A stretch of DNA of 64,000 nucleotides from Byssochlamys sp. IMV 00236 (taxonomy: Eukaryota > Ascomycota > Eurotiomycetes > Eurotiales > Thermoascaceae), in assembly GCA_001931875.2 (NCBI GenBank), contig MSJH02000809.1, positions 62,001 through 126,000 of the forward strand, in the 5' to 3' direction. Shown piece after piece: positions 1 to 64,000 of the stretch; positions within the stretch are counted from its first letter, which is position 1; each line of letters starts with the position of its first letter. Position numbers and translations under genes: made by a program. The notes under the pieces were generated by a model. It was not told the origin of the DNA and searched no databases. It saw only the letters and a list, made by a program, of their open reading frames with translations.

Positions 1-150
1 GCGCCGGCCTTGTTTCTCCGCGATCTCTGGCTTTCTTTGGCTCGACCCGGACGATCTTGGTCGCTAATTTACTCTAGTCGCCCTGCGCTATCGAAACTTT
101 TTCGGACTTCACCCCAGGCTGCGAGATAGCACATCTGCGCTGTCTTCGAG

Positions 151-2049
151 ATGTCTGCTCCGAGTCCCATCTGTCTGCTCTGTCAGACCAGGGTCAGTGT
201 CCTGCGGGGCCCTATTCTTCCTCCAGGATGGCAGAGCTCGAGGTCGATGGCCTCTGCCAGGCTGCGCCGCAAGCCAGCAGCACGCATGGCGCTGTCGCCC
301 AGTGTCTCAAAGGACACTTTGAAGCCGTCACGCGGTCGAGAAAAACCTGGACCATGGGGTGGTATGAACCAGACGCATGCGAATATTCCGGGAACACCAC
401 GAGCAAGGTCGCAGGCAGAGATTAAGCGCTCCTACGCCGGACGGGAGGCGAAACAGCCGGAGAAGAAAGAAAGTCCATTGTACAAGGCGCTGAAGATGCA
501 GACCGCTCTGGCGCCGGTGACATACCGCCAGAGGACTACAGTCAAAGAAAGGATATCGGAGATTACGAGCTTCGACAAATTTCAGCTCTTACCAGCTGTG
601 CGCGATGCGATCTTCTCTCAGGCTCTTCCGGGACTTGTGGACGTAACGCCTACGCCGATCCAGCGTCTGGCGATTCCTGCTCTGCTTGGGACGGATATCA
701 AAAAGAAGCCCACAAAGAAGCTGGATGAAGGGGAGCTTGGATTCGAGCAGTTTCTTCTTGCAGCGGAAACTGGATCTGGTAAAACTCTTGCATATCTGGT
801 CCCGACTATCGATGCTGTCAAACGGCAAGAGGCTGTTGAGAAGGAGGAAACAGAGAGACGAGAGAAGCAGAAGGCTGAAGAAAAGGCGCAGAGGATGAAA
901 AACAGTGCCTTCGAACTTGAGCCGCCTGAAGTCGAGACCGATTCTGATGCTGGTAGACCCAGGGCCATCATTCTGCTTCCAACGTCGGAGCTGGTCGAAC
1001 AGGTTGGCTCAATGGTGAAGGCATTCTCCCATACAGTGAAATATCGCTCAGGCATGATTTCGTCGACATATACCCCTCGAAGAATCCGAAATATTCTCTT
1101 CAATCCGAATGGAATCGACATCCTCGTTGCCACACCACATCTGCTGGCGTCCATCGCGAAGACCGATCCCAACGTTCTCAGCCGAGTGACGCATCTTGTC
1201 ATCGACGAAGCAGATTCCCTCATGGACCGATCTTTCGCTCCGACAACGAGCGAGATCATCGACAGAACTGCGCCTTCGCTCAAGCAGCTCGTTTTCTGCT
1301 CCGCCACGATTCCTCGCAGCTTTGACTCCCTCCTGCGCAAACGCTACCCTGACGCTCGTCGACTGACGACTCCCAACCTGCACGCTATTCCCCGTCGTGT
1401 GCAACTGGGTGTTGTCGATATTGAAAAGGATCCATACCGTGGTAACAGGAATCTTGCATGTGCCGACGTCATATGGTCGATTGGCAAAGCCGGTGATCCA
1501 TCCGACTCTCTGGGACAGTATTCATCGTACGCCGGTAGCAAGGACAAGAAAATACTTGTGTTTGTGAATGAACGTGAACAAGCCGAGGAAGTGGCGAAAT
1601 TCCTGTCGTCAAAGGGCATCGATGCAATTGCGTTCTCTCGTGATTCCAGTGATCGCCGCCAGGCAGAGATCCTCTCGGATTTTACTACTACGACCCCTCC
1701 CCCGTCGCCAGAGGACATTATGCTTGCCCAGAAGAAGCGTCGCCTTGAAGATGCCGTCCCCTTCGAACTCCCGGATCGGGGTCAGCAAGAGGGACCTTCG
1801 CGTACACTGCCCAACACCAAAGTTCTCGTGACAACAGACTTGGGTTCTCGTGGCATTGACACCCTTGCAGTCAAGACCGTCATCCTGTACGATGTCCCAC
1901 ATAACACCATTGACTTCATCCACCGCTTGGGACGTGTCGGCCGCATGGGCAAGCGTGGCCGTGGAATTGTTCTTGTCGGCAAGAAGGACCGCAAAGACGT
2001 TGTGAAGGAAGTCCGTGAAGCTATGTACAGAGGACAAGCTCTGATATAG
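151..2049 (+). CDS. mrh4: Mitochondrial DEAD-box RNA helicase, Mrh4-like
   Basis: Intronless gene for a 632-residue ATP-dependent RNA helicase. The order of motifs is complete: a Q-motif region near residue 165, Walker A (AETGSGKT, about 205-212), DEAD at 352-355, SAT at about 384, GSRGID, and HRLGRVGR beginning at about 591. The first 110 residues are rich in Arg and Ser and poor in acidic residues, as expected for a mitochondrial presequence. Family knowledge: Mrh4 acts in assembly of the large mitochondrial ribosomal subunit. The Lys/Glu-rich insertion between motifs I and Ia (about 225-260) and the long spacer before the last motifs fit Mrh4 better than cytosolic DEAD-box proteins. Assignment to Mrh4 rather than another organellar helicase is inference from length and architecture. 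The first ATG of the frame is used. Confidence 0.88.
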   Translation: MSAPSPICLLCQTRVSVLRGPILPPGWQSSRSMASARLRRKPAARMALSPSVSKDTLKPSRGREKPGPWGGMNQTHANIPGTPRARSQAEIKRSYAGREAKQPEKKESPLYKALKMQTALAPVTYRQRTTVKERISEITSFDKFQLLPAVRDAIFSQALPGLVDVTPTPIQRLAIPALLGTDIKKKPTKKLDEGELGFEQFLLAAETGSGKTLAYLVPTIDAVKRQEAVEKEETERREKQKAEEKAQRMKNSAFELEPPEVETDSDAGRPRAIILLPTSELVEQVGSMVKAFSHTVKYRSGMISSTYTPRRIRNILFNPNGIDILVATPHLLASIAKTDPNVLSRVTHLVIDEADSLMDRSFAPTTSEIIDRTAPSLKQLVFCSATIPRSFDSLLRKRYPDARRLTTPNLHAIPRRVQLGVVDIEKDPYRGNRNLACADVIWSIGKAGDPSDSLGQYSSYAGSKDKKILVFVNEREQAEEVAKFLSSKGIDAIAFSRDSSDRRQAEILSDFTTTTPPPSPEDIMLAQKKRRLEDAVPFELPDRGQQEGPSRTLPNTKVLVTTDLGSRGIDTLAVKTVILYDVPHNTIDFIHRLGRVGRMGKRGRGIVLVGKKDRKDVVKEVREAMYRGQALI

Positions 2050-5108: not shown

Positions 5109-7096
5109 TCACATCGTCATCCTAAGCTGGCGGTCTCTCCTCCGGCTAGCTCTGGTGTTGCGTCTGTCATTGCCAACATCACTGCTGTCTGTCTCAGTTC
5201 TCGCATCAGAAAGTTCAGGCGTAGGCGTAATGCCAAAGCTGACTCCGCGACTCTTCCGCCGGACACGGGCTTCGTCTTCTGGAGCGATGAAACGATGAAC
5301 CGTCCTATGATCCATGACTCTTTCTTCATCATCGTGCGGTCCTTCTTTATCGGTCTTTGGCCATTGAAAGCCATACAGCTTGGAATGACGCTCGCAACGA
5401 GGGCATTCCTTTCGAGTCTGGTAAGAATTCTCCTGGACAAACCAGGCATTGCAAGTCTGGCAGTCTACCCATCGATCATAGCGCTGGGCGAGTAGTTTGG
5501 CCGTCTTCGTGTAGTCGCCGGGGACACGAACACCAGGGGTATCATCTTCGACCGATGCCACGACCTTGCGTTTCTGGCGTGATACGCTTCTGCCCTTGGG
5601 TACGACGGTTTCGAGGTGGTCGTCTAATTCATACGAATCAGATAAGTCTGAAAGCTCACCGGCGTCACTGCCGCTTAGGCATGACTTTGGATCTGGATGG
5701 TCTGTACCTGATTGTTCGGCCTGGAGAGTCTCAACAGCCGCAGACTCACGTACGGACATCTCCACTGACTCGACCTTGATTTTAATTCCCGCGTCGAAGA
5801 CCGATGTAGCGGCAGTTGACGCCGAAGACCGCTGAGATTCATCTATACCGGTTGATTTGGGCGAATCACTGTCACTTGGGAGTTGTGGTAGAGGTGCCTC
5901 GCCCCCGGATTCTCTAGATTGCGGACGTTCGGGCCTACTCTCAGACTCACCGCTAGTCCCGTTCGTGCGATCTTCAGCCGCTACAGCGGAAAGAGAGTTG
6001 TCTAGAGCAGAGACAAATGACTGTTCAATCGATGGTGCGAGTTCTGGTAGCGAAATCTCCTCGCGTAACTTGGAGCTTTGGCGCTGAAACTTGCCCCTCT
6101 TGCGCGGCGAGACAAACGCTGAAGGCTCAGAATCAGTATCAGGGTCATACTTCCTCTTCATACGAGGAGTCCCGCTATCAGGAATGCTGGCTTCGTCGTC
6201 AGGCGCAGGAGTAGAGGCGGCGCTCTGCGAGGGAGAATCGAACCGAGGAGCCCAGCCATTCCTTACAGCTCGCTCACATGTGAGGCAGAGACATTCACAG
6301 TTGTCCTCTCCAAAGTAATCTTCGCCGTAGGAGACGGTTATTTCCTCCCCAATGTGGATATCACGAGCTGCAATAACCTGCATGCCCTCCGAACCACGCG
6401 TCACCAATCGCCCGTTCGCGTTACAGTCATGGTTTGCGAAGCGTGCGGGACCAAGAAATAGGGAGGGTGTCTTTTTGCGGCTGGACATGACAATGCTGAA
6501 ATCTTTGCGATTCAGGTCCAGGTCCATCTCTTCTTCTCGGGTCATGGCGACGAGGGTGCCACTGAGATACTTGATCTCTTCTCCTTTCTTGATGAACTTT
6601 CGCGCACATACGGCAGCCTCATGCTCCGTGATGGTGTATCTATTCGTCGTGGTAACCTCAAACGGACATTCAGGGAGGTAGATCAGGATATACTTCCGTA
6701 GGTGTCGACGGAACCACTCCTTCTCCCTGTCGTTGGGCAGCTTCGCCAAGTACTTGTTCAGACCCGAAAGCGCAAGTAGTGCTTTCTCCGCCTTGGCTAC
6801 ATCTTTTGCGACGATCACGTCGTGGAGAAGGATTCGGGCCACGTCGTCGTCTTTTATTCCTCTCGCCGCGTTATATTTCGTGCGATTCTTTCGAATGTTC
6901 GTCCAGAAGTACGCCTGCGTAAGAAACCACTGTCAGAAGAGGCGCGACACAGACGGTGTAGGATGCGAACGGAGAGACAAACACGATCAACCAATGCGTC
7001 CGTCGCTACATCGTCGTAACTGGCCAATTTCGCGAGTGTAAGGCGTTCGCGCCGGTCGACTGCCGGGGACGCCCTCGAAGATTTGGGGGCAGGCAT
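5109..7096 (-). CDS. set9: Histone-lysine N-methyltransferase Set9 (Suv4-20 type)
   Basis: Two exons: 7096-6983 and 6914-5109, with a 68-nt intron (GTTTGT donor, CGCAG acceptor, phase 0), giving 639 residues. The join reads ...DALVDR|AYFWTNIRKNRT, matching the conserved Set9 N-terminus (LTLAKLASYDD). The SET domain covers roughly residues 110-250, with the NHDC cofactor/substrate motif at about 199-202, GEEITVSYGEDYF and then a Cys-rich post-SET (CECLCLTC). The remaining part is long, acidic and presumably disordered, with a second CxxC...CxxC zinc site (CQTCNAWF... CPRCERH) near the C-terminus. Known role of the family: methylation of histone H4 lysine 20, needed in fission yeast for DNA-damage checkpoint signalling. 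Divergently transcribed from the uL14m gene. Confidence 0.92.
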
Positions 7097-9519: not shown

Positions 9520-10241
9520 ATGGTATGCACTGCCCCTCATTCGAGCTATTAGCTGCTATGATCCCTTATGGCATCATATACCTGACTATGGAACAATAGG
9601 TTGACGCAGGCCTTCCAGCGGGCTGGGAAGTCCGTCACTCGAATTCCAAAAACCTGCCGTACTACTTCAATGCTTTGACGAAAGAGTCGCGCTGGGAACC
9701 CCCGGCCGACACCGACACTGAGAAGCTAAAAATCTACATGGCCACGCACCACAGCGCCCCTGCTGCCAACGCATACAGTGCTGGCCACGGAGAGGGCAAG
9801 ATACGAGCAAGCCATCTGCTCATCAAGCACAGAGACAGCAGACGGCCCAGTAGCTGGCGGGAGGCAGAGATTACAAGGTCTAAGGAGGAGGCATATGAGA
9901 TCCTGCGTGCCCATGAGAAGCGTATCCAGTCGGGCGAGGCTAGTCTGGGGGACATCGCTGTTTCCGAATCAGACTGCAGTAGTGCTAGGAAGAAGGGTGA
10001 CCTGTATGTTTATACTTCTTGCGAAAACTGCAACGAGCAAAAAGCTAATTCGAACCTAGCGGTTTCTTCGGACGAGGTGAGATGCAGAAAGAGTTTGAAG
10101 ATGCCGCATTTGCTCTTCAGCCGGGCCAGGTGAGCGGCATCGTGGAGACTGCATCTGGTCTTCACCTGATTGAGCGGTAGGTAGCTTCTTCGGAGTCCTG
10201 ATTCGCAGCTGCTAACGCAAAATCGTCACAGAGTTCAGTAG
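9520..10241 (+). CDS. pin1: Peptidyl-prolyl cis-trans isomerase Pin1/Ess1 (parvulin)
   Basis: Four exons: 9520-9522 (the ATG alone), 9600-10003, 10060-10176 and 10232-10241, giving 177 residues. A WW domain occupies the N-terminus ([10 protein letters not shown]... [15 protein letters not shown]). The parvulin domain follows: [56 protein letters not shown]. Phospho-binding basic residues are present after the first strand (HRDSRRP). Known role: isomerises pSer/pThr-Pro bonds, including in the RNA polymerase II C-terminal domain and mitotic regulators. The last exon has only 10 nt. If its intron is not removed, translation ends four residues earlier at the in-frame TAG (10178-10180). Confidence 0.93.
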
Positions 10242-12247: not shown

Positions 12248-14018
12248 CTAGTGGGCCACAGCAACGGTCTTGTTGTTCTTTAGTCGCTCCTTGATAATGT
12301 CCTTCCGCTCCTTGCGGAGCTTGGAAGCGTACCGGACGCCGAATCCGTGGTTGAAGACCTCCTTGATCTCCTCTAGAGTCAAGCCCGAGACTTCAGGGTA
12401 GAAGAAGATGATCAAGATCCAACCGACACCGCAGATACCGGCGTAGAAGCCAAAGGCACCGGACGGCGTCCAGGCCTTCATCATCGAGAGGAACGTGCTA
12501 GAAATGATCACGTTGCTGCCCCAGGAGGAGCAGGCTATCCACATTGTTCCCATAGCGCGGACTTCCAGCGGGAAGAAGTCGGTGCTCATCCAGGCAATGT
12601 TTCCGACGGACACGCCGTAAAACACGACGAACAAGATGATGAAGACCAGGACGGCAATAGCCGCTGGAGGGATCTTGGTTGATTCGACAGCCAGTGTATC
12701 GAGGTTGACTGGGATGTAGAGGAATGCGATAGCAATTGCGATCAGTGAGGCGGACATAGCCCAGACAGTGCATAGCATGATACGACGGCGTCCGACACGG
12801 TCGACGATCACCATGTTGACCCAAGTCATGATAAAGTTGACTCCAGCGACAACAATTCCCACTGCGACGGGGTTATTGAACCCGACCAGCCCGAACAATG
12901 TTCCAGAGTAGTACATCAAGCTGTTGAAACCGGACAGCTGAGAGATGACCATCAGGCCGGTGGCACTGAGCAGGGCGCGGAGGTTGGCTGGGTTGGTGTG
13001 CATCTGCTTGATCTTAGACCACCGGCTTTCGCCTTCATTCACCTCCTTGGCTTCATCACAGGCGATCATGATTGAGGTCACCTTGCTAGCAACCTGCTCG
13101 TCGGTGGCGCCCTTGTAGATTTTCTGGAGCACCACCCTGGCCTGGTCTACCTTGCCATGATAGATGAGATGACGAGGTGATTCCGGACAGAACGGCAGCA
13201 GAACAGCAAGCGTAATAGCAGGGACAGCTGCTAGGCCCACCATATATCTCCAGCCATTAGGTACATTGGCAAAGGCTGCCCCGATGGCATAGGAGACCAC
13301 CTGACCTCCTGTGATAGACATATTGTTCAGTCCGATAAGACGGCCACGCACCTTGGTCGGAGCAATCTCTGCGATGTAGAGGGGCACGACCATGGCTGCG
13401 GAACCGACACCGAATCCGATCACAAGACGGCCCACGGACATCTGCGCGATGGTGAACGATGCGGCTTGCAAAACGGCACCAATGGTGAACAGACCACAGC
13501 CCAGATAGATTGCCACCTTGCGGCCGTACTATACACAGTCTTAGCCATGCGATCAATAATTCGGGTTGTATATGATAATAACATACCCTGTCGGCCGTGA
13601 GACCGGCAATAATGGCTCCCACAAAAGCACCTCCTGAGCATAGTGAGGTGATCAACTCCTTTTCGCTGCTAGACACAGGCCGGTTGTTGAGATCGTTACC
13701 CAGATACACGAGGACGGCAGATATAATTCCAGTATCATATCCAAACAACGACCCAGCAATAGACGCTGTTAGAGCCACCAGCCAGACGAACTTGCTTGTT
13801 GGCAGGGAGTCGATAGAAGTATCATCAGACTCCCATGCACTGTGTTCGACATCGCCGTCAACCTTGTCCGCGTGGACAACGTCGGGCTTGTCGAGGCTCA
13901 TTCTGTCTGCTGAATACGAATATATCTTGCCTGTAATGGGTCGAGCGTGTTCGATATGCCGGTACTCTTCCGGCTTGTCATCTTTACCAGCCGTCCGCTG
14001 CTCCTCTTGAATCGCCAT
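12248..14018 (-). CDS. MFS polyol/sugar transporter, myo-inositol transporter (Itr) type
   Basis: Two exons: 14018-13587 and 13528-12248 (58-nt intron, GTATGT donor, phase 0), giving 570 residues. The ATG at 14018 is the first true ATG. The frame upstream opens only with GTG. A hydrophilic N-tail of about 80 residues precedes the first helix. Sugar-porter signatures are complete: FGYDTGIISAVLV, DRYGRK, GRLVIGFGVG, PLYIAEIAPTKVRGR, ITGGQVVSYAIGAAF, PESPRHL, and DRVGRRRIML in the second half, with 12 predicted helices. The GGQ...AYxxGAAF and ISQLSGFNSLMYYSG stretches resemble fungal myo-inositol/polyol carriers more than hexose carriers. Substrate is inference. The basic C-tail ends in the cytosol. 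Divergent from the Zn2Cys6 gene at 15066. Confidence 0.85.
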
Positions 14019-45985: not shown

Positions 45986-48631
45986 CTATGAGGCAAGAGA
46001 ACTAGCATCATTGTCGCTTGGATAGTAGAATGCCGCGACCCTAGAGAAAAGTTAGATTGGTATTTGGTTTGGACGATTCGAAGGAAATACGAAAAACTCA
46101 CGCTATGATAACGTAGGCGGCGATCAAAAGAGATCCTTCGAGGTAGTTACTCCTGCCATCGAGAACGAGGAAATTGACCACGAAGGCCGTCACGAAAAGA
46201 CAGACGGTCTCGAACAGGGTGAAGTACAGAGACATATCGCGGTCCATGCACCACCCAAGAATGACGACGAGGGGCGTGACAAAGATAGCTGCATCAAGTA
46301 GTCAGTATAATCTGTTTTGTTAGGACCAAGAGATTGCCTGGGTGCTTACCGATTTGAATACTACTGCCAACAGAGACACCGATGGCGAGATCCATCTTGT
46401 TCTTCGTTGCAACACTGACAGCCGTAACGTGCTCTGCTGCGTTTCCAACAATGGGCAAAATAATTAGACCAATAAAGGCCTGGCTGACATTGGAACTGGC
46501 AATCATTCCAGGAATAGCATCGACGAGAAATTCGGCGCACACAGCCACCAGGGCAGTTGACACTAACAACATGACTACGGCAGAGGTACGGGACATTTCT
46601 GGAATTGGGCTCTCGGCAGGATGTTCAGTCTCCGTTGGAGGGGCATTGGGCGTGCGAGCAGCTGTTCTGGCGAATTGCATGGCATTACCAACACCAGACA
46701 TTCTGGCAGCGCGGACAGGAAGCGAATTGGTGCGTTTAATGCCACTGGGACCAGCACTGGGGTATGCTGAAGATGCAGTTGGCGGGTATCGAGGAGAAAA
46801 CACAGTGTTTGTCAAAATAGGCGGAATTGAAGGGAATGGTATTCTGCGCTTGCGAATATCTTCAGCGGTGGCACCGGCTGTCTGAGCCGGGGTTTTGCGT
46901 TCCACAGATGGTTCCGAATGGTAGGTTGTCAAAGGAGGAAGCTGAGATATATCATCGAGCGGCGCGATCTTCAGATCGTTTGCAGTATCCGTAACGTTCA
47001 CGGGGTTGCTATGTCTCTTTGAATGTTTCTTGCCCTTTCGCCGCGACTTCTTGCTTTTGATACTGCCTTGTTCTAACCCGAAGTCTCGAGAAAGAGGACC
47101 CGTAAACCGCTGGGCATCATCATCCGCGTCATATCGAGTGTCCTCAGTGACGTCTGCGGCTGTGCGAGAGGATGCTCCATCCAAATGGCTTGCACTGGTT
47201 GCCTCTGCCGTCTGACTGCGAAGAGCAGTCTTGTGATCCGATGATGTCCCCTTGGAGCTATTGGACTTTCTGCGCTTGCGATGTTTCATGGCTCGTCTGA
47301 TGCGTTTCGCCGTGGTCCAGGATGTATTCGAATCGTCAGAATCATCAGTAGAGCTGTCAGACGAATCCGAGGAGTTCATGAAATCCGCCAGTACACCTGG
47401 ATGTGATTCCTCATCGATGATCTGCTGGGGAATACTGGCGTAGAGGTATGCGTGGGACTTCAATTGGAAAACGATGTATAGAATGTAGACCAAGAGAAGG
47501 ACCTAAAAACAATTAGACTACGATCCAGATTCGAACTCAATTAGACGCTCACAATACTAGTCCCACGGCTGACTTTCAGGGAATATTTATCCGCATTCGC
47601 ATTGCTTGCCCACGATGCGTGGAAAGCTGTCGGTAGAAGTAAACTTGTGACGCTCAGACTCAGCAAACAAGCACTCATCTGCGTGACAGTGCTGTTGTAT
47701 ATCTGCTCCTGGAATCGAAGACCTCCCAACAGGAAGGCCATTCCTAGAATTAGGAGTAGATTTGCGAGAATTGAGCCAAGTAGGGAGGCTTGCACGACTC
47801 GAATTTCATTCTGGACGACTGTCAGACCAAGTCAATCCTCGGGAGAACAGTAATCACATACCTTGACTAGAGCAATACTATGACAAGAGCTCAAGATTAG
47901 CTTGGGGTCAGGCCATCTCCAGAGCAGCTACAGAGACTTACATGCTAGTCAGATTAAGTTAGCAAAGTTCGGTTGTCAATCACGGGTGGTGTGCAGACTC
48001 ACAAAATAATCAATTCGACCGCATTGCCAAATGTGACGTTGATCAGAGCACCCACGGTGTCACCAAGACGACTTGCTACATGTTCAGTAGCGTGGGCCAA
48101 CAATCCCGCCAGGGGAACGATAGCGACCGCGTTCATAGCGAAGATGATAGAGGGATTCATCCCAACGGCCTCAACAGCTATACCGACCGGGACAAAGACC
48201 AACAGCACATTGACCCAGGAGTGGCATAGAGCACTCTTGGTATGACTGCAGAAGCGAATCGATCCATTTTTCATCCGGGTAAATATGCCCTGCTTGAGTT
48301 TATCGTCTTCACCATTCCCTTCTTTTGTAGCAACAACCGTGCCTGTACTGTTGGCTGACACCGGAGGTTCGACATCGCGGGAATTGGCCGCAGGTTCCTC
48401 AGTTTCCTTCTGTCGCAAGTTCGATCTCCTTGCCGGATTCTGAGTCGGGAGAGGACTACCGGACGCGTGAGCTTTCGCCCACGATTTAATACGGTCTAGG
48501 TCAGGTAAAAGGGTCAGTGTTCGTGGCGTTCGCGATGATCGACGCGCTGCTGTTCTTGATACCTTATCGGGAAAGTATACACGTGCAGCACGGTAGAAAG
48601 GGGTTCAGGACAGGTGTTCGAACTTACGCAT
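45986..48631 (-). CDS. Vacuolar-type Ca2+/H+ exchanger (CAX, Vcx1-like) with large acidic loop
   Basis: Eight exons: 48631-48628, 48495-48003, 47944-47942, 47877-47862, 47810-47553, 47502-46350, 46288-46102 and 46040-45986, giving 722 residues. The first exon is ATGC; the third is the single triplet CAT. Cation-exchanger signatures: the first alpha repeat GLLAHATEHVASRLGDTVGALINVTFGNAVELII and the second LPIVGNAAEHVTAVSVATKNKMDLAIGVSVGSSIQI, with the acid/His residues for proton/calcium exchange. Hydrophobic helices lie on both sides. The middle loop (residues about 285-545) is long and polar, with an acid/Ser run (SSDSSTDDSDD), a Lys/Arg run (KSKKSRRKGKKHSK) and poly-Pro parts. Yeast Vcx1 is far shorter, so loop and N-tail are additions, perhaps regulatory. 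Role by family: loads calcium into the vacuole. The last helix ends in AVAAFYYPSDNDASSLAS. Confidence 0.88.
47942..47944 (-). other. 3-nt exon (CAT) of the Ca2+/H+ exchanger
   Basis: Between CTGACTAG (acceptor) and GTAAGT (donor) lie only three bases. They supply the third base of one codon and the first two of the next: ELII-F-I-I-ALVK. Leaving it out keeps the frame but shortens the conserved helix by one residue. The neighbouring donor GTGAGT and acceptor GTCATAG are good. Confidence 0.65.
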
Positions 48632-56424: not shown

Positions 56425-58156
56425 TGATCTGTAAGCTCCAATATACAACGAGTCATAGCATCCCACTTTCGCGCCACTTTGAGTCGCTATCGGGATGGAT
56501 GTTTCTGCCACCGCCGGGATCAACGTCGGGCCGTGCACTCAGTCTCAGTTACTCTTTCAAGTAGTACATACCATGTCCATTGGTTTCACGACTCATGAGA
56601 GACCAGAAACTGGAATTGAAATCACTCACGGAGCGATCCTTATGTTTACCGTATTCGCATGTCTGCCCTGTAACGAAATTACCCAGACCTCCAGAGGCTA
56701 AGCCATGACGAACCGCGCAGAACGCTGCCTGTCTGATATCTCGAGTTGCGGGGTATCTACATTCTGATAACTTTCCCCTTGCTCAGGACACCGTTTTATG
56801 CTGCCACTTTGCAGGTCAGCGTTCGAGTCGCTTATCTATCCCAATCCGACAGTTACGGTGAGGATGTTGAGAACGTGGAAGCCTATAGAGGCGACGCGTG
56901 TGGAAGGAAAGTTCCGCAGTCATCGAGAATATTTATGTACAAGAATCAAAGCGAGCTGAATTATAAAGAAACCTTGCCTGCCTTGAATGTTCTACACCCT
57001 CCCGGAATAGATAGTCTCTCTATCAATCTACGCGATTTAAGTTTTATCTTCAGGAATTGAAGGTAGAACAGACCGCATTATCTCTTAATTTCCTGTGTCC
57101 ATGGGATAGTTACATGAAGCGGATATCCAATACATTATCTTTATATTGGCCACATCTGGAAACCCTGGACGTTGAGATGGTCCGCAGGTCTACTTCGTCA
57201 GGAAAGTCGCTATCTTCTTCTGAATTAGACCAGCGCTCAAAGTTTCGTCAATCAGAGAGAGGAATGGATATTTAATTACGCGCCCGAGCATCAAGCTGAA
57301 CTTGACTCAGCTGATGACTGGTGGTTTAGTGAGAGGCTGGCTGCACCTGGAGTTGATCAATAATGATCATGATCCGTCGACTGTCCATCTCGATGGGTTA
57401 TGGATTCGATTTGATCGTGAAAACACCATTGATTTTTTTTTCCCCCCGTGATCCATTCCCAACGTTTTCTGCTACGTGGGATGCGTATTCACCGTATGAG
57501 CCAAATGAGCAGGGCGCCTGAAAGTTCCGGCTTGAGGACATGGAAGTTCATGATAAGTAAGTGGCGGAAAAAATACGGCGAGGTGAAATCGACATTAGAA
57601 TTCCACGTCTGGCCACCCGTCTGACAGAAAAATGCACACTTATTTGAATAATGGCTAGATATGATATTACTAGGAGTAATGAGATTCCTCCGTGGCTGGG
57701 ACGGCTGAAAAAGCGCTGAGTAAAAAAAGAAAAGAAAACCCCCCTAGTTTTGTTTTCTATATGCTCACCTGTTCAATTTGATTGGAAAATACTATTATTT
57801 CCTTCTGGTAATAGCAATATAGCATCTACGTATGATACATCACCCCATTCCCCCATTTAGTTATATTGCGAAGAGAGAAGGATAAGCGGAGGTCAGCTAA
57901 ATATAAATAAAAGCTTCAGGTGGGGCGAATTTCCTTCGATGGGGCGGATAGATAATCCATTGATCTGACCGACCCCAGCTCGTAGATTGATTTTCGGGCC
58001 GTAATAATTGCTACTAAGTTACATATTTGCTACTACTTCTACTACACATCTATAAAAATTACCACCAAACCACATAAGCAATGCACGTCTCGAGATAAAT
58101 ACGCTTCAATTCCAACCCAAAATCTACAGTACATACATACATACATACATCAAACC
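56425..58156. other. Intergenic region with F-box/LRR-like relic
   Basis: 1.7 kb. On the plus strand, 56800-57060 and 57057-57370 read in two frames: AYRGDACGRKVPQSSRIF, ETLPALNVLHPPGIDSL then VEQTALSLNFLCPWDSYM and SLYWPHLETLDVEMV. The pattern and the Trp/Asp end (DSADDWWFSERLAAPG) resemble the end of a fungal F-box protein, but the frame is broken near 57056 and there is no start. The remainder is AT-rich. A perfect CATA run lies at 58132-58150, just before npgA. Confidence 0.45.
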
Positions 58157-59266
58157 ATGACCGCCTCAACCACCCCATCCCTAACAAGATGGTACATCGA
58201 CACCCGCCCTCTAACATCTTCAACTCTACCCCTCCTCGAAACCCTCCAACCAGCAGACCAAGAATCAGTCCAGAGATTCTACCAACTGCCCGATCGTCAC
58301 ATGTCCCTGGCTTCAAACTTGCTCAAGTACCTATTCATTCATCGAACGTGTCGGATTCCCTGGGCTGAAATCAGCATCAGTCGCACGCCGGCGCCTCATC
58401 GGAGACCATGTTTTATACCTTCGCAGAAACAGAAGGATGGATCTTGCAGCGATGTTCCTATTCCGAATGTTGAGTTTAATGTTAGTCATCAGGCGTCGTT
58501 GGTTGCGTTGGCGGGGTGTGTTGTGCCATCGTCTTCTTCTTCTTCATCTTCATCAACTTCGTCTGGGACGGCAAAAGTTACACCATCACAAGCGGATCTA
58601 TTCTCTAAACCCCCAACTCCAGCCTCCGCACCAAACCACTCAATCCCCCAAGTCGGGATAGACATCACGTGCGTGGACGAACGATCCCGCCGACGTAAAG
58701 ATTCTATCCCCGCAACACCTCAAGCACTAGCTGAATCCGTCGATATATTCGCCGAAGTCTTCTCGCCACAGGAGCTGGAAACGATCAAAAACATCGCGAT
58801 CTCTAGCGAGATCAGCGACAATTCCAATTCTGATTCTGCGTCTGCAAGTGAAAGACCCACGCAAGCTGTCAATAAGGGTTTACGACTCTTTTACGCCTAC
58901 TGGGCTCTGAAGGAAGCGTATATTAAAATGACCGGGGAAGCACTTCTGGCGCCGTGGCTGAGACAGTTGGAATTCACGGATGTGGTTGCACCGGAGTCTG
59001 TTGTTAGTAATGCTGGTGCTGGAGAAGGGTCTGAGTTTAGTGAGCCGTATACGGGTGTGAAGACTTGGTTATATGGGAAGAAGGTGGAGGATGTGCGGGT
59101 CGAGGTTGTGGCGTTCGAGAGGGACTACCTGATCGCGACGGCGGCAAGAGGTGCGCAGATTGGAGCAGGGAGTATGAATGATGCGTGGGGGAATCTGGAG
59201 AGGATTGATATTGAGAAGGATGTTGCACCTTGTGCGAAGGGCCAGTGTCGGTGTTTGGATCGATGA
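58157..59266 (+). CDS. npgA: 4'-phosphopantetheinyl transferase (NpgA/CfwA type)
   Basis: Intronless, 369 residues, ATG at 58157 in a CAAACCATGA context. Family features in order: RWYIDTRPLTSST and LKYLFIHRTC in the N-half, NVEFNVSHQASLVALAG (substrate loop), VGIDITCVDERSRR with the magnesium-binding Asp, ESVDIFAEVFSPQELETIKN, and RLFYAYWALKEAYIKMTGEAL with the catalytic WxxKEA. A poly-Ser run sits near residues 119-128. It transfers the phosphopantetheine arm from CoA to carrier domains of polyketide and peptide synthetases and of the lysine pathway enzyme Lys2. In Aspergillus nidulans the npgA/cfwA gene is essential without lysine and siderophore supplements. The C-terminal Cys-rich CAKGQCRCLDR tail is less usual. 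Confidence 0.92.
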   Translation: MTASTTPSLTRWYIDTRPLTSSTLPLLETLQPADQESVQRFYQLPDRHMSLASNLLKYLFIHRTCRIPWAEISISRTPAPHRRPCFIPSQKQKDGSCSDVPIPNVEFNVSHQASLVALAGCVVPSSSSSSSSSTSSGTAKVTPSQADLFSKPPTPASAPNHSIPQVGIDITCVDERSRRRKDSIPATPQALAESVDIFAEVFSPQELETIKNIAISSEISDNSNSDSASASERPTQAVNKGLRLFYAYWALKEAYIKMTGEALLAPWLRQLEFTDVVAPESVVSNAGAGEGSEFSEPYTGVKTWLYGKKVEDVRVEVVAFERDYLIATAARGAQIGAGSMNDAWGNLERIDIEKDVAPCAKGQCRCLDR

Positions 59267-59919: not shown

Positions 59920-60852
59920 TTAGATTTCAACAGCGGTAGAACTAGCGTTGTGTGGCCTGGAGTCGACCTCCTGTTCATCCTTGTGCGACATTTCAGCCAG
60001 CGTCTTCAGCATCGTCTGGCGTGTGTTGTTGGCGAGACTGTCGACGTCTGCCGGGGTCAATCCCTTTGTGCTGATCGGAGGCAGAACTGCGTACGTTAGC
60101 AAGTGTTGAAAAGCGCGCGATGTTAACGTAGACACCCTACCTTTAACTTTGATAGTACCGGAGTTGAATCTCAGGTTTCGAGGGCTCAGAACATGCGAGT
60201 AGTTCTCCACCACCACAGGCACAATATCAACCTGAGCCTTGACAGCCAGGTGGAAAGCACCCTTCTTAAATGGCAGGAGTTCTGGCTTGTCCGAATAGCT
60301 GCGGGTTCCCTCCGGGAAGATAAAGACGCTCTGCTTATGCACCTGCATCTCCTTGGCCGCACCATCGAACGCCTTCACTGCCGTCTCGCGGTTGGCGCGG
60401 TCAATGAAGACCGTTCCCGACAGAGCCATGAACCATCCCAGGAAAGGTATGTTTTTGAGCGACTTCTTCGCTGTCACACTGCAGTACGGTGGGAAAATGG
60501 CTCCCAGCATGAGGACGTCCAGCTCAGTCTGGTGGTTTCCGATGAACACCGCGGGCCGAGTTGACAGATATTCTTTTCCTTCAATGATGTCGAATTGCAC
60601 TCCAGTGGTATAGCGCATCACCCACTTAAAGCTACGCGCGGTAGCCCATTGCGATATCCGTCCATATCCAGCAACACGGAGAACAATGGAAGCAACGACA
60701 CCGTAACTAGCGCATACGAGCAGAGAGCCGTAAGAGGCCAAACAGCGAGCTGCGAACCCGGCATGGGGAATCTTCACGGAAGCAGCGAAAAAGGACAGCG
60801 TCACGACGACATACGAGGCAATGCCTGAGACGACGTAGCTTAAGACGGACAT
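59920..60852 (-). CDS. slc1: 1-acyl-sn-glycerol-3-phosphate acyltransferase (Slc1/PlsC)
   Basis: Two exons, 60852-60141 and 60086-59920 (54-nt intron, phase 1), giving 292 residues. The ATG at 60852 is the first real one; the frame upstream starts with GTG only. Two N-terminal helices (LSYVVSGIASYVVVTLSFF and LASYGSLLVCASYGVVASIV) anchor it in the ER membrane. Acyltransferase motifs: NHQTELD (106-112), GTVFIDR (147-152), FPEGTRS (179-185), and VPVVVENY. It converts lysophosphatidic acid to phosphatidic acid in glycerolipid synthesis. The tail ends EQEVDSRPHNASSTAVEI and carries no clear retrieval motif. Confidence 0.92.
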   Translation of the reverse strand: MSVLSYVVSGIASYVVVTLSFFAASVKIPHAGFAARCLASYGSLLVCASYGVVASIVLRVAGYGRISQWATARSFKWVMRYTTGVQFDIIEGKEYLSTRPAVFIGNHQTELDVLMLGAIFPPYCSVTAKKSLKNIPFLGWFMALSGTVFIDRANRETAVKAFDGAAKEMQVHKQSVFIFPEGTRSYSDKPELLPFKKGAFHLAVKAQVDIVPVVVENYSHVLSPRNLRFNSGTIKVKGRVSTLTSRAFQHLLTYAVLPPISTKGLTPADVDSLANNTRQTMLKTLAEMSHKDEQEVDSRPHNASSTAVEI

Positions 60853-61978
60853 GGTTGTGGAGAAAGTAGCGGCACACAAGCGGGGGGGTGTCCTAGATAT
60901 ATCGACGGATGGAGGCAGCCTCGATGGCACAGCGCTCTATGATGTTAATAGAAGATATTTGTAGAGACTATGGTATCGGGATCTCACTCTATCTGGTGCA
61001 GGATGATCCGATGCAAATGAGCCTCTCAGAAAGGACGCTGTTCACAATATCAATACGGGAATGTGGAATCAACTCAGAAGACGATCACTGAGCCAGCGGC
61101 CATGTCCAATGGATGTGCTCGATAGTGATAGACAGAAGGAGAGACAATAGAGACCAGTCTTCGCGCGGCAAACCAACCACGGCCAGAGATAAACAGCGCG
61201 ATCAAGGAAGAGAAGAAGAGTACGGGCCCGACGGCAACTGACGTACACGAATACTTCGTTCCTGCGCGCCGCGGCTCTTTTTTTCTGCTGGGGCTTCGGT
61301 CTTCTGTTGGGCACCGCTCACCGCCTTGGCTTGCTCCAACTCCCCGCAAGCACTTGCTCTAGAACAAGATGGACGGCCGTGGATTCTCAGGATGAGTTTG
61401 GTGCCGTCTTGCAGTTACAAGAGCTAATGTAATAGCTACTCGATCACAGGTTGATTATTATACTGTCAGCTGGATCGATCATTTCAACTCAATGCCGGGG
61501 AATTGAATCTCATGTCTTGCAACCATCCGGTCATACGACCTCACTTAACTCCTGCGCCAAACAGGGATGATTGCACATAACCTGAGAATCAACGCGTCAG
61601 TACAAATAACAATATCTATTGATGCCAGAGTCGCGCCGCATGATCAGCATTATATTCATGATCGAAGCCATGGCCCGGGTATCACCGTCTCCTGCGTGGT
61701 TCCAAGCTGACCACGAGAAAGCCAATCCCGCTAAGGTAGTGTACAACAAAGAATCTGCGAGCGGACTGTCTCCATGTCCGATGTGCCTCTCCAAGTCAAA
61801 ATATAATCAGGATAACCAACTGCCCGTAACTCCCGCCCATGCTAATGCTCCTCGCTTCCACAAACGCCAACCGCCCAATGCAGATGTAAAGTGGAATCCA
61901 CCCCCTCAACCCGGAGGGCGAAGAAGAAAGTAGAAAAGGTCTGCCTGTAGCAAGGATGACCTTAAACTATCCAGTCGC
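60853..61978. other. Intergenic region
   Basis: 1.1 kb between slc1 and the 3' end of cdc27. Overlapping frames (61069-61349, 61597-61933) are compositionally unlike genes. No RNA or repeat seen. Confidence 0.5.
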
Positions 61979-64000
61979 CTATGCCATGTCCTCATCGTCC
62001 TCTTCATCTTCGTCCAAGGTTTCCATAGCGTCCTTGATGTATTGCGCCGCCTGCCAAGAAACATTAGTATATATTTCGCCCACAAGGCATGTTAAACTAC
62101 TCACCTTGGGATCCAAATTCAAGGCCGTTGTGAAATGCTTGATCGCATTACCCTTATCGTGCAACATCTTGTAGAGCTTGCCCAGAAGATAATGCACATT
62201 AGCCTCATCGGGAGCAATGTCTTTGAGGACCTTCAGCTCCACCAGGGCAAGCTTGAGCTCCTGAAGTTTCATCAAGGCCCGAGCTTTCCTGAATCGGGCC
62301 AACACCGACTGAGGGGCCAGTGATGAAGCACGTCCGTACTGGATCAACGCCGCTTTCGGGTTGTTCATCTTCTCCAACACCAGACCAATGCAGCAGACCA
62401 GGACTGCATTCGTGGGGTTGATGCTCGCTGCGTTGCGGAAGTGTTGTTCCGCGAACTCCAGTTTGCCCATTTTCTCGTACACCGTACCGAGACCGTACCA
62501 TGCATTGTAATGTCGATTATCCGCGCTGATACCGTGCCGATATGCGTCTAGCGCCTTGTCATATTCCTCGTTGGCAACGTATTCGTGGCCTTGCAAAGTG
62601 AACCCATATGCGAACTTGGGGTCTAATTGGGTTGCGCGCTTGAAACACTTCAAAGCTTGGTCGTGATCACGCTGGTGAGAGAAAGAATTACCCACGGCGC
62701 ACCATGCTTGCGGTGACAACCGATCAATCTCCATGAGTTCGTGGGCCAAGTACGCCAATTCCACGTCGTTTTTCAAATGCCATAGGACAGTCGAGTAGAT
62801 TTCCATATCCTCCAATCGTGATGGTGCAATCGTCTTCACCCGGATGAAGTACTTTTCAGCCTCGGGATACAACGCTTGCTCGTAGTATGCACGTCCCAGC
62901 TGGGAGAGTACCCATGGAGTTTCTCTCTGGCTCTGAGGAAGTGTATTGAAAATCTGAATGGCCTCCTGGCATTTATAGCGATTCAGAGCGAAATATCCCG
63001 TTCCCAGTTTTGAAAAGAGGTCCAAGAGCCAGCCCAGGGCCTCGATTTCTCTCGACCTCTCGATCGAAGCTGCTCTAGAGGTTCCGCTGCTGGCAGTCCC
63101 GTGTGCTGCCGCACCTGACGTATGGTCTCTGCCATTCGTTTCTATTCCATCGCTGGCTGGTTTTCGATTACCACTCACCACGCGACCAACAGCAGACGTG
63201 GTAGCTGTACGACCTTTTGTCCCTGTAGCCTTAACCTTTTTGAGTTCCCTGCTGTCTTTAGCCCCCAACGCGGTGCTCGATAACTTGCTAGTTGGCCTGA
63301 TCTGGTTGAAAAGGCGAACACTCCGTCTTTGAGGCGCCCCAGGTTCAGTTGGCTGGGATGGCGGGTGGGCTACTTGCCCTGAAATCGTCCGTTTTCGTTC
63401 TCCCACAGCTAGCGCAGGAGGCTGCTCTCTTTCAATATGAACCGAGCTCTGTTCCTCCGGTTCCGCCCTTGTTCGAAGTCGAGATTTGACAGTCGTTCTC
63501 ATTTTTGGTGGAGGATCGGCGGTATAGTCGACTCCCACAGTATGCATCGCTCTATTTCTCCTCGCGGGTGCCAGAGGAGGCTCCCATGAAGATTCCGTCC
63601 CGCCGGCAGCGTGCGCGAAACGATCGTCCGAATCACTTTGAGCTACTGGGGTCTCCGATCCTTCGGGTATAGACTGCACTCCGGCAGATGCAACACTTAC
63701 CGTGCTGCCATTTAGCTTTTCCCATAGGGCCGAGCTGCCATATGTAGATGTTGTGGTAAAAGGATCGATATTAGGGTTGGCATTGGCTTGCGGTTGTAAT
63801 GCTCCATTTGTGGCTGACCTCTCGAGCGGCGTGGCATCATTGTTCCCCGGTGACGAGAGCATAGCTAGTAAATCCGGACTCAATTTGTAAATGTTCGGGA
63901 CCCGCACGTTGACGCCTAGGGAACATCGATCAGCAACTCGATTGCAGCAATGTAGCAGACGTCAGCATCTCACCAGTTTCGCAAAGTCCCAGGAACGCAT
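61979..64000 (-). CDS. bimA: Anaphase-promoting complex subunit Cdc27/APC3 (BimA), 3' part
   Basis: Partial: exons 64000-63974 (runs off the right edge), 63915-62105 and 62050-61979. The joined text AFLGLCETG|VNVRVPNIYKLSPDLL is a signature of Cdc27. A long Ser/Pro-rich, presumably phosphorylated linker (about 270 residues) follows, with basic motifs such as RSVRLFNQIRPTSK. Then come about nine tetratricopeptide repeats (for example ALGWLLDLFSKLGTGYFALNRY, AWCAVGNSFSHQRDHDQALKC and AWYGLGTVYEKMGKLEFAEQH). The tail is acidic (ETLDEDEEDDEDMA). Role: scaffold of the APC/C that binds the Ile-Arg tail of Cdc20 and Cdh1. In A. nidulans the gene is bimA. The last intron is 54 nt with no stop, so its retention would add 18 residues in frame. 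Confidence 0.93.

What the first reader, a model, noticed from the sequence alone, without database searches (positions are those of the whole stretch)
47862..48002. A 3-nt exon and a 16-nt exon in a Ca2+/H+ exchanger
The only model that gives the family helix ELII-F-I-I-ALVKNEIRVVQ at its normal length needs an exon of just CAT (47942-47944), bounded by good CTGACTAG and GTAAGT sites, then a 16-nt exon. Skipping CAT keeps the frame and removes one Ile from a conserved transmembrane helix, so splicing may tune the transporter. Three-nucleotide exons are very rare.
Basis: partly seen in the sequence, partly recalled or inferred. Interest (0 to 1): 0.75.

Follow-up and report, generated by a model that had tools for sequence, protein, structure and literature searches.

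The report
Three-letter exon in fungal calcium transporter
A mould gene for a calcium transporter contains an exon only three DNA letters long that is probably always kept in the message and may be very old, while many database versions of the same protein in other fungi lack the amino acid it supplies.

Summary
On the minus strand, exon CAT (47944-47942) lies between two complete introns (58 and 64 nt), followed by a 16-nt exon (47877-47862). Of 231 open in-frame splice paths, only one, CAT + 16 nt, gives the family peptide FGNAVELIIFIIALVKNEIRVVQ. The resulting 722-aa protein matches an annotated Paecilomyces variotii protein without gaps (8 substitutions), and an intronless paralogue in the same genome has the same helix length. 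'Tuning by skipping' is not supported but not excluded. Of 260 related proteins sampled, 103 lack exactly this Ile (80 of them first met in a search that sought such forms); all 103 are among 228 with NCBI-type sources, 0 among 32 with other sources only. That contrast is partly confounded by lineage; the cleaner evidence is that two Aspergillus niger records, and two 95%-identical pairs of unannotated and annotated proteins, differ by just this Ile. I read the Ile-less form as a recurring gene-prediction error. Its spread over six classes suggests a constitutive 3-nt exon in the ancestor of leotiomyceta (inferred; no other fungal DNA and no RNA could be read). Exons of 1 and 3 nt are already reported in fungi: a new member of a known kind.

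The parts
45986..48631 (-). Coding span of a Ca2+/H+ exchanger gene (8 coding exons, 722 aa)
   Evidence: Spliced model equals P0001 (P. variotii) in length with 8 substitutions and no gap; P0001 matches TIGR00378/PF01699
48628..48631 (-). First coding exon, 4 coding nt (ATGC)
   Evidence: Gives MHRIKSW as in P0001
48003..48495 (-). Coding exon 2, ends FGNAVELII + TT
47945..48002 (-). Intron A, 58 nt, GTGAGT...CTGACTAG, branch-like CTAAC 14 nt from the end
47942..47944 (-). 3-nt microexon CAT: third base of the Phe166 codon and first two bases of the Ile167 codon
47878..47941 (-). Intron B, 64 nt, GTAAGT...TCATAG, branch-like CTAAT/CTGAC
47862..47877 (-). 16-nt microexon TATTGCTCTAGTCAAG (I-A-L-V-K)
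47811..47861 (-). Intron C, 51 nt, GTATGT...GTCCAG, branch-like CTGAC
47553..47810 (-). Coding exon 5, begins NEIRVVQASLLGS

Best explanation
The gene is the Paecilomyces variotii (or sibling) member of the fungal vacuolar-type Ca2+/H+ exchangers, and CAT is a real, constitutively included 3-nt exon. Two ordinary short introns, each with its own donor, branch-like site and acceptor, are removed by intron definition, probably one after the other because the acceptor of A and the donor of B are only 3 nt apart (inferred). CAT is exactly positions -3 to -1 of donor B, so that donor reads CAT|GTAAGT before and after intron A is removed (shown by the sequence). Splicing joins TT|CAT|T into Phe166-Ile167, four and five residues after Glu162 of the GNAVE motif, keeping the first alpha-repeat helix at its usual length. 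The Ile-less form seen in databases is a gene-prediction error: predictors merge A + CAT + B into one intron. Separate, less certain step, not part of the confidence given here (about 0.75): the spread of Ile-less models over Eurotio-, Dothideo-, Lecanoro-, Sareo-, Leotio- and Sordariomycetes implies that the microexon existed in the common ancestor of leotiomyceta.
For: Exact anatomy and unique path. Same-species annotated protein P0001 has the Ile and is 722 aa like the model, without gaps. Intronless paralogue in the same genome (G000:C695:101124-103082) reads FGNAVELIIFIIALVANEIQIVQ in contiguous DNA; a second paralogue (C807) gives 23 residues if one GTAAGT...CACAG intron is removed. Of 260 distinct related proteins: 154 full, 103 lacking exactly one Ile, 3 garbled; all 103 are among the 228 with NCBI-type sources and 32 of 32 with other sources only are full. 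Direct pairs: two A. niger records P0020 (full) and P0025 (Ile-less), 712/721 identical; P0016 (lgn, 550 contigs, longest 5441 nt; full) against annotated A. fischeri P0036 (Ile-less), 691/723; P0047 (lgn; full) against annotated A. floccosus P0082 (Ile-less), 677/706; a one-residue gap falls at this Ile in each. Other core landmarks keep constant spacing, e.g. 235 of 237 for ATE..GNAVE, the other 2 not matching the pattern. PDB relatives align here without gap. The profile score of the N-terminal half falls without the Ile: TIGR00378 188.0 to 182.5 bits, TIGR00846 187.2 to 180.6.
Against: No RNA read was seen. That 'lgn' proteins derive from assembled public reads, some of them RNA-seq, is inferred from the label and short contigs, not stated by the tool; other contigs in the 32 are long (up to 305552 nt) and may be genomic. 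The source contrast is weaker than the raw totals: in the two searches not aimed at Ile-less forms it is 23 of 147 against 0 of 24 (Fisher two-sided p 0.048 on full and Ile-less rows), in the first alone 19 of 106 against 0 of 14 (p 0.12), and only 4 of the 32 have an Ile-less nearest annotated relative, 2 of these at 95% identity. Listings were capped at 120 of 1672, 1993 and 982 hits, and clusters are at 90% identity, so a minor isoform could be hidden. Presence of the microexon in other genera is inferred from proteins only (searches found no other DNA). 47 of 47 Penicillium and 21 of 21 ELILFII-type proteins are full, so some lineages may have lost introns here.
Confidence: 0.9

Rival explanations
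1. CAT is a regulated cassette exon: some transcripts skip it, giving a transporter one Ile shorter in a core helix, so that splicing tunes Ca2+/H+ exchange.
For: Skipping keeps the frame; 103 of 260 sampled database proteins have exactly that shorter form. Precedents in filamentous fungi: a glucose-dependent microexon switch in Trichoderma Xlr2 (PMC11121469, abstract and passages) and skipping of a 15-nt exon in A. niger rtnA (PMC6616335, passages).
Against: No Ile-less protein among 32 from unannotated sources, including 9 rows of a search that ranks Ile-less forms first (partly confounded by lineage). Conserved length from bacteria to plants. The residue sits within five positions of the GNAVE glutamate. 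The skip joins the outer donor to the outer acceptor past a complete intron.
Confidence: 0.06
2. There is no microexon; a single 125-nt intron is removed and the helix in this lineage is really one residue shorter.
For: Donor 48002 and acceptor 47878 are good; another intron of the gene is 132 nt; 103 sampled proteins look like this.
Against: Same-species P0001 has the Ile; a complete acceptor, CAT-type exon and donor with both branch motifs arose in 0 of 20000 shuffles; A. niger has both forms at 712/721 identity; paralogues have 23 residues.
Confidence: 0.02
3. The microexon is real in Paecilomyces but not ancient: the Ile-less models in other classes reflect independent small exons, real one-residue deletions or annotation habits.
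For: Only Paecilomyces DNA was read; no other fungal DNA was available.
Against: All 103 Ile-less proteins lose a residue at the same place with the same flanks, FGNAVELIIFIA. A 3-nt shift of one splice site is hard to build from TTY-ATH-ATH-GCN, which holds no AG or GT. A. luchuensis P0076 and A. carbonarius P0066 read ELIILY(V), as expected from read-through at the same TT|GTAYGT donor (sequences; inference).
Confidence: 0.17

Closest known systems
1-nt exon of CYP621A in Fusarium (Nelson and Syed 2026, PMC12940212; parts 1 and 2 of 3 of the text read)
   Same: Ultra-small exon in a filamentous ascomycete; needed to keep a conserved motif; intronless homologue used as length marker; missed by gene models.
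   Different: 1 nt, not a multiple of 3, so omission breaks the frame; Fusarium orthologues only; read support shown there, not here.
Two 3-nt exons in lipS of Dactylellina haptotyla (PMC5639578; two passages seen)
   Same: 3-nt exons in a filamentous ascomycete.
   Different: Mentioned in passing for the duplicated gene of one species; no claim of deep conservation in the passage seen.
Microexon switch of Xlr2 in Trichoderma virens (PMC11121469; start of abstract and passages seen)
   Same: Microexon in a filamentous ascomycete.
   Different: Regulated inclusion that depends on glucose; transcription factor; exon size not seen by me.
3-nt micro-exon 8 of Drosophila homothorax (PMC7392893; 12 of 23 passages shown)
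   Same: 3-nt, conserved over long time.
   Different: Alternatively spliced with a 48-nt overlapping exon; animal transcription factor.
Conserved misannotated plant microexons, e.g. 1-nt exons of APC11 and VPS55 (PMC8831610; 12 of 27 passages shown)
   Same: Old tiny exons missing from reference annotations.
   Different: Plants; found with RNA-seq pipelines.
Stwintrons of Pezizomycotina (PMC6616335 and PMC5639578, passages)
   Same: Consecutive splicing of adjoining U2 introns by intron definition; involvement with a small (15-nt) exon in rtnA.
   Different: Here no splice element is interrupted: both introns are complete and a 3-nt exon remains.

Membership tests
Calcium/proton exchanger (CAX/VCX; TIGR00378, PF01699) | Score above curated cut-offs | tested here: met
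   For P0001, the same-length protein 8 substitutions away: TIGR00378 364.9 bits (cut-off 211.15), TIGR00846 357.5 (317.45), PF01699 151.6 (24.9). Of the window's own protein only the N-terminal part (291 aa) was scanned: TIGR00378 188.0, a piece and below the whole-protein cut-off
Calcium/proton exchanger (CAX/VCX; TIGR00378, PF01699) | Two alpha-repeats with GNAxE motifs | tested here: met
   FGNAVE at 157-162 and VGNAAEH in the second half; two stretches aligned to Vcx1 4k1c
Calcium/proton exchanger (CAX/VCX; TIGR00378, PF01699) | Transport of Ca2+ at the vacuole | not testable with these tools
   Inferred from family
Microexon (internal exon of 30 nt or less) | Internal exon between two complete introns | tested here: met
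   3-nt and 16-nt exons with donor, branch-like and acceptor sites in each flanking intron
Microexon (internal exon of 30 nt or less) | Presence in mature transcripts | tested here: inconclusive
   Same-species annotated protein has the residue, as do 32 of 32 relatives from non-NCBI sources, but no reads of this gene were seen
Regulated cassette exon | Both isoforms in transcripts | tested here: inconclusive
   No Ile-less protein outside annotated genome records (0 of 32), partly confounded by lineage; no reads available
Stwintron | A splice element of an external intron interrupted by an internal intron | tested here: not met
   Donor GTAAGT and acceptor TAG around CAT are intact; after removal of intron A the next donor starts 3 nt downstream

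The most novel reading that the evidence does not exclude
A 3-nt, one-codon exon was fixed in the ancestor of leotiomyceta and has been kept as an obligatory, constitutively spliced exon of the vacuolar Ca2+/H+ exchanger in many lineages since, while a sizeable share of annotated proteins (23 of 147 in two unaimed searches; 103 of 228 with the aimed one) lack the residue: an extreme, testable case of long-term maintenance of an exon too small for exon definition.
Probability: 0.75. Interest if true: 0.62.

Novelty: new member of a known kind. Interest (0 to 1): 0.5.

Why it matters
It gives a concrete locus on which to study how a 3-nt exon is recognised, and it points to a systematic error: many public proteins of this core transporter appear to be one residue short in the ion-binding repeat (23 of 147 annotated proteins in two unaimed searches). 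Anyone modelling, expressing or aligning these proteins would be affected, and the same kind of screen (one conserved residue missing in some gene models of a species but not in others) could find other hidden microexons without reads.

Tried and rejected
Rejected: a single 125-nt intron with a shorter helix; NAGNAG-type 3-nt site shift (TTY-ATH-ATH-GCN has no AG or GT to shift to); stwintron (no interrupted splice element); other splice paths (for example FGNAVELIILCIALVKNEIRVVQ, also 23 residues, needs a GC donor and does not match the family). My first N-terminal guess (MPARRSS...) was wrong; P0001 showed MHRIKSW and the model was corrected; the helix is not affected. Regex misses were checked by eye: of 4 misses, three (P0099, P0106, P0108) are full and P0048 is garbled; P0233 was missed and counted as Ile-less. 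In one search the printed heading '14 (skip)' is wrong: code 14 is full and 13 is skip.

Led nowhere: searches for DNA relatives in viral contigs and genome contigs found none. Literature searches: I saw titles and abstract starts of the listed rows only (20 of 63, 10 of 10, 13 of 13, 20 of 27, 11 of 11, 15 of 126, 12 of 13, 6 of 6) and none of these names a microexon in a Ca2+/H+ exchanger; this is not proof that none is in print. Structure prediction was not run, as I judged that it would not discriminate between the isoforms.

Full report
The sequence. Searches show a gene on the minus strand, 48631..45986. P0001 scores 364.9 bits against TIGR00378, calcium/proton exchanger, and matches PF01699. 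The window is therefore from P. variotii or a close sibling, and the annotated protein already carries the residue that the 3-nt exon supplies. The start of the gene differs from my first guess: ATGC (48631-48628), a 132-nt intron, then ACCGTATT..., giving MHRIKSW.

The microexon. Intron A (58 nt) and intron B (64 nt) each have a donor (GTGAGT, GTAAGT), a CTRAY branch-like motif and a TAG acceptor; between them lies CAT, the third base of the Phe166 codon and the first two bases of the Ile167 codon, four to five residues after Glu162 of the GNAVE motif. Of 3583 enumerated paths, 231 are open and reach NEIRVVQ, and one reproduces the family 23-mer. In 20000 dinucleotide shuffles, AG-YAT-GT with both introns of at least 40 nt arose in 80; with a good donor in 2; with branch motifs in both introns in 0. 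Keeping intron A, or keeping intron B after A is removed, gives a stop almost at once (TTG-TGA; TTC-ATG-TAA; read). Intron length alone does not decide, as intron 1 is 132 nt.

Length of the helix. In the same genome a paralogue without introns here reads FGNAVELIIFIIALVANEIQIVQ in contiguous DNA (C695), and another (C807) gives FGNAVELIVSIIALKDHQIRVVQ if one GTAAGT...CACAG intron is removed (the intron bounds are my reading); both have 23 residues. Yeast Vcx1 (4k1c), plant CAX1 (9vsc, 9vsa) and bacterial YfkE (4kjr) align without gaps at this place. Removing the Ile lowers the score of the N-terminal part from 188.0 to 182.5 bits (TIGR00378) and from 187.2 to 180.6 (TIGR00846).

The database comparison. 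Three protein searches each listed 120 rows, of 1672, 1993 and 982 hits; together 260 distinct proteins. The third query was an Ile-less segment, so that such forms rank first. Classified: full 154; lacking exactly one Ile, always FGNAVELIIFIA, 103; garbled at this place 3 (P0048, P0066, P0076). Of the 228 with NCBI-type sources 122 are full, 103 Ile-less, 3 garbled; of the 32 with only lgn, ena or jgi sources all 32 are full, 17 of them from contigs no longer than 6582 nt. Two cautions. First, the total of 103 is inflated by the third search: the first two give 23 Ile-less of 147 NCBI-type proteins and 0 of 24 others (Fisher p 0.048, garbled rows left out), the first alone 19 of 106 and 0 of 14 (p 0.12); in the third, 102 of 111 NCBI-type rows and 0 of 9 others are Ile-less (p 5e-9). 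Second, lineage confounds: 28 of the 32 unannotated-source proteins have a full nearest annotated relative, and only 4 (P0016, P0047, P0156, P0161) an Ile-less one, two of them at 95% identity. The cleaner evidence is in pairs: two Aspergillus niger records, 712/721 identical, differ in having or lacking the Ile; P0016 and P0047 carry it while their nearest annotated relatives (A. fischeri P0036, 691/723; A. floccosus P0082, 677/706) do not. Other core landmarks keep their spacing: 235 of 237 for ATE..GNAVE, 231 of 237 for QA(A/S)..GG(L/M) with three proteins at another length, the rest not matching the pattern. I read the shorter form as a prediction error at a conserved microexon. That lgn stands for assembled public reads, some of them transcripts, is my inference from the label and short contigs.

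Age. Ile-less models occur in Aspergillus (18 of 55 proteins of the first search) and Paecilomyces lecythidis (P0002) of the Eurotiomycetes, Venturia (Dothideomycetes), Variospora (Lecanoromycetes), Sarea (Sareomycetes), Botrytis (Leotiomycetes), Colletotrichum (Sordariomycetes) and Thelocarpon (Thelocarpales). Lineages of one species each were looked up; that of Aspergillus is recalled. The simplest account is one microexon in the ancestor of leotiomyceta. All 47 Penicillium and all 21 ELILFII-type proteins in the sample are full, which may mean intron loss there. No other fungal DNA could be read, so this step is inferred.

Mechanism. In filamentous ascomycetes splice sites are said to pair across short introns (PMC6616335, passages). 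Here the acceptor of A and the donor of B are 3 nt apart, so the two introns can hardly be recognised at once and should go one after the other (inferred); either order could work, since CAT is exactly the exonic part of donor B (sequence). Skipping would need the outer donor to pair with the outer acceptor past a complete intron. It is not impossible: the same paper reports skipping of a 15-nt exon in A. niger rtnA by a special route, and a glucose-dependent microexon is reported in Trichoderma (PMC11121469, start of abstract and passages).

Known and new. Tiny exons are known: 1 nt in Fusarium CYP621A with read support (PMC12940212, two of three text parts read), two 3-nt exons in Dactylellina lipS (PMC5639578, passage), a 3-nt exon in Drosophila hth (PMC7392893, passages), and 1-nt exons in plants missing from annotation (PMC8831610, passages). 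This case is a new member of that kind; the likely deep conservation and the recurring misannotation are what is unusual. None of the titles and abstract starts listed describes it; four of the eight lists were complete, the others showed 20 of 63, 20 of 27, 15 of 126 and 12 of 13.

Noticed in passing
48628-48631 (minus strand): The first coding exon holds only 4 coding nt (ATGC) before a 132-nt intron; my own first model missed the true start MHRIKSW.
   Followed up: yes
G000:C695:101124-103082 (L010): A second, VCX-like gene (55% identical) in the same genome, with one open frame across the region and no intron at the microexon site.
   Followed up: partly
Proteins P0048, P0066, P0076 (A. 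hancockii, A. carbonarius, A. luchuensis): Gene models garbled exactly at the microexon cluster (helix of 18 or 37 residues instead of 23, or replaced), another sign that predictors fail here.
   Followed up: partly
Penicillium proteins: 47 of 47 Penicillium proteins are full length at the helix, against 34 of 55 in Aspergillus; an intron may have been lost in Penicillium.
   Followed up: partly
G000 (840 contigs, 47.4 Mb), for example C63:19843-21377 (L014): The assembly is larger than I recall for P. variotii (about 30 Mb), and the exchanger on contig C63 looks unlike the other copies; a mixed or contaminated assembly is possible.
   Followed up: no
window 130-2046 +, 5112-6932 -, 9600-10130 +, 12251-13528 -, 57986-59263 +, 59923-60936 -, 61982-63961 -: Neighbours by Pfam (10 open frames scanned, 3 without a match at 1e-5): DEAD-box helicase, SET-domain protein, WW/rotamase protein, sugar transporter, phosphopantetheinyl transferase, acyltransferase, TPR protein; these look like ordinary fungal genes.
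   Followed up: partly
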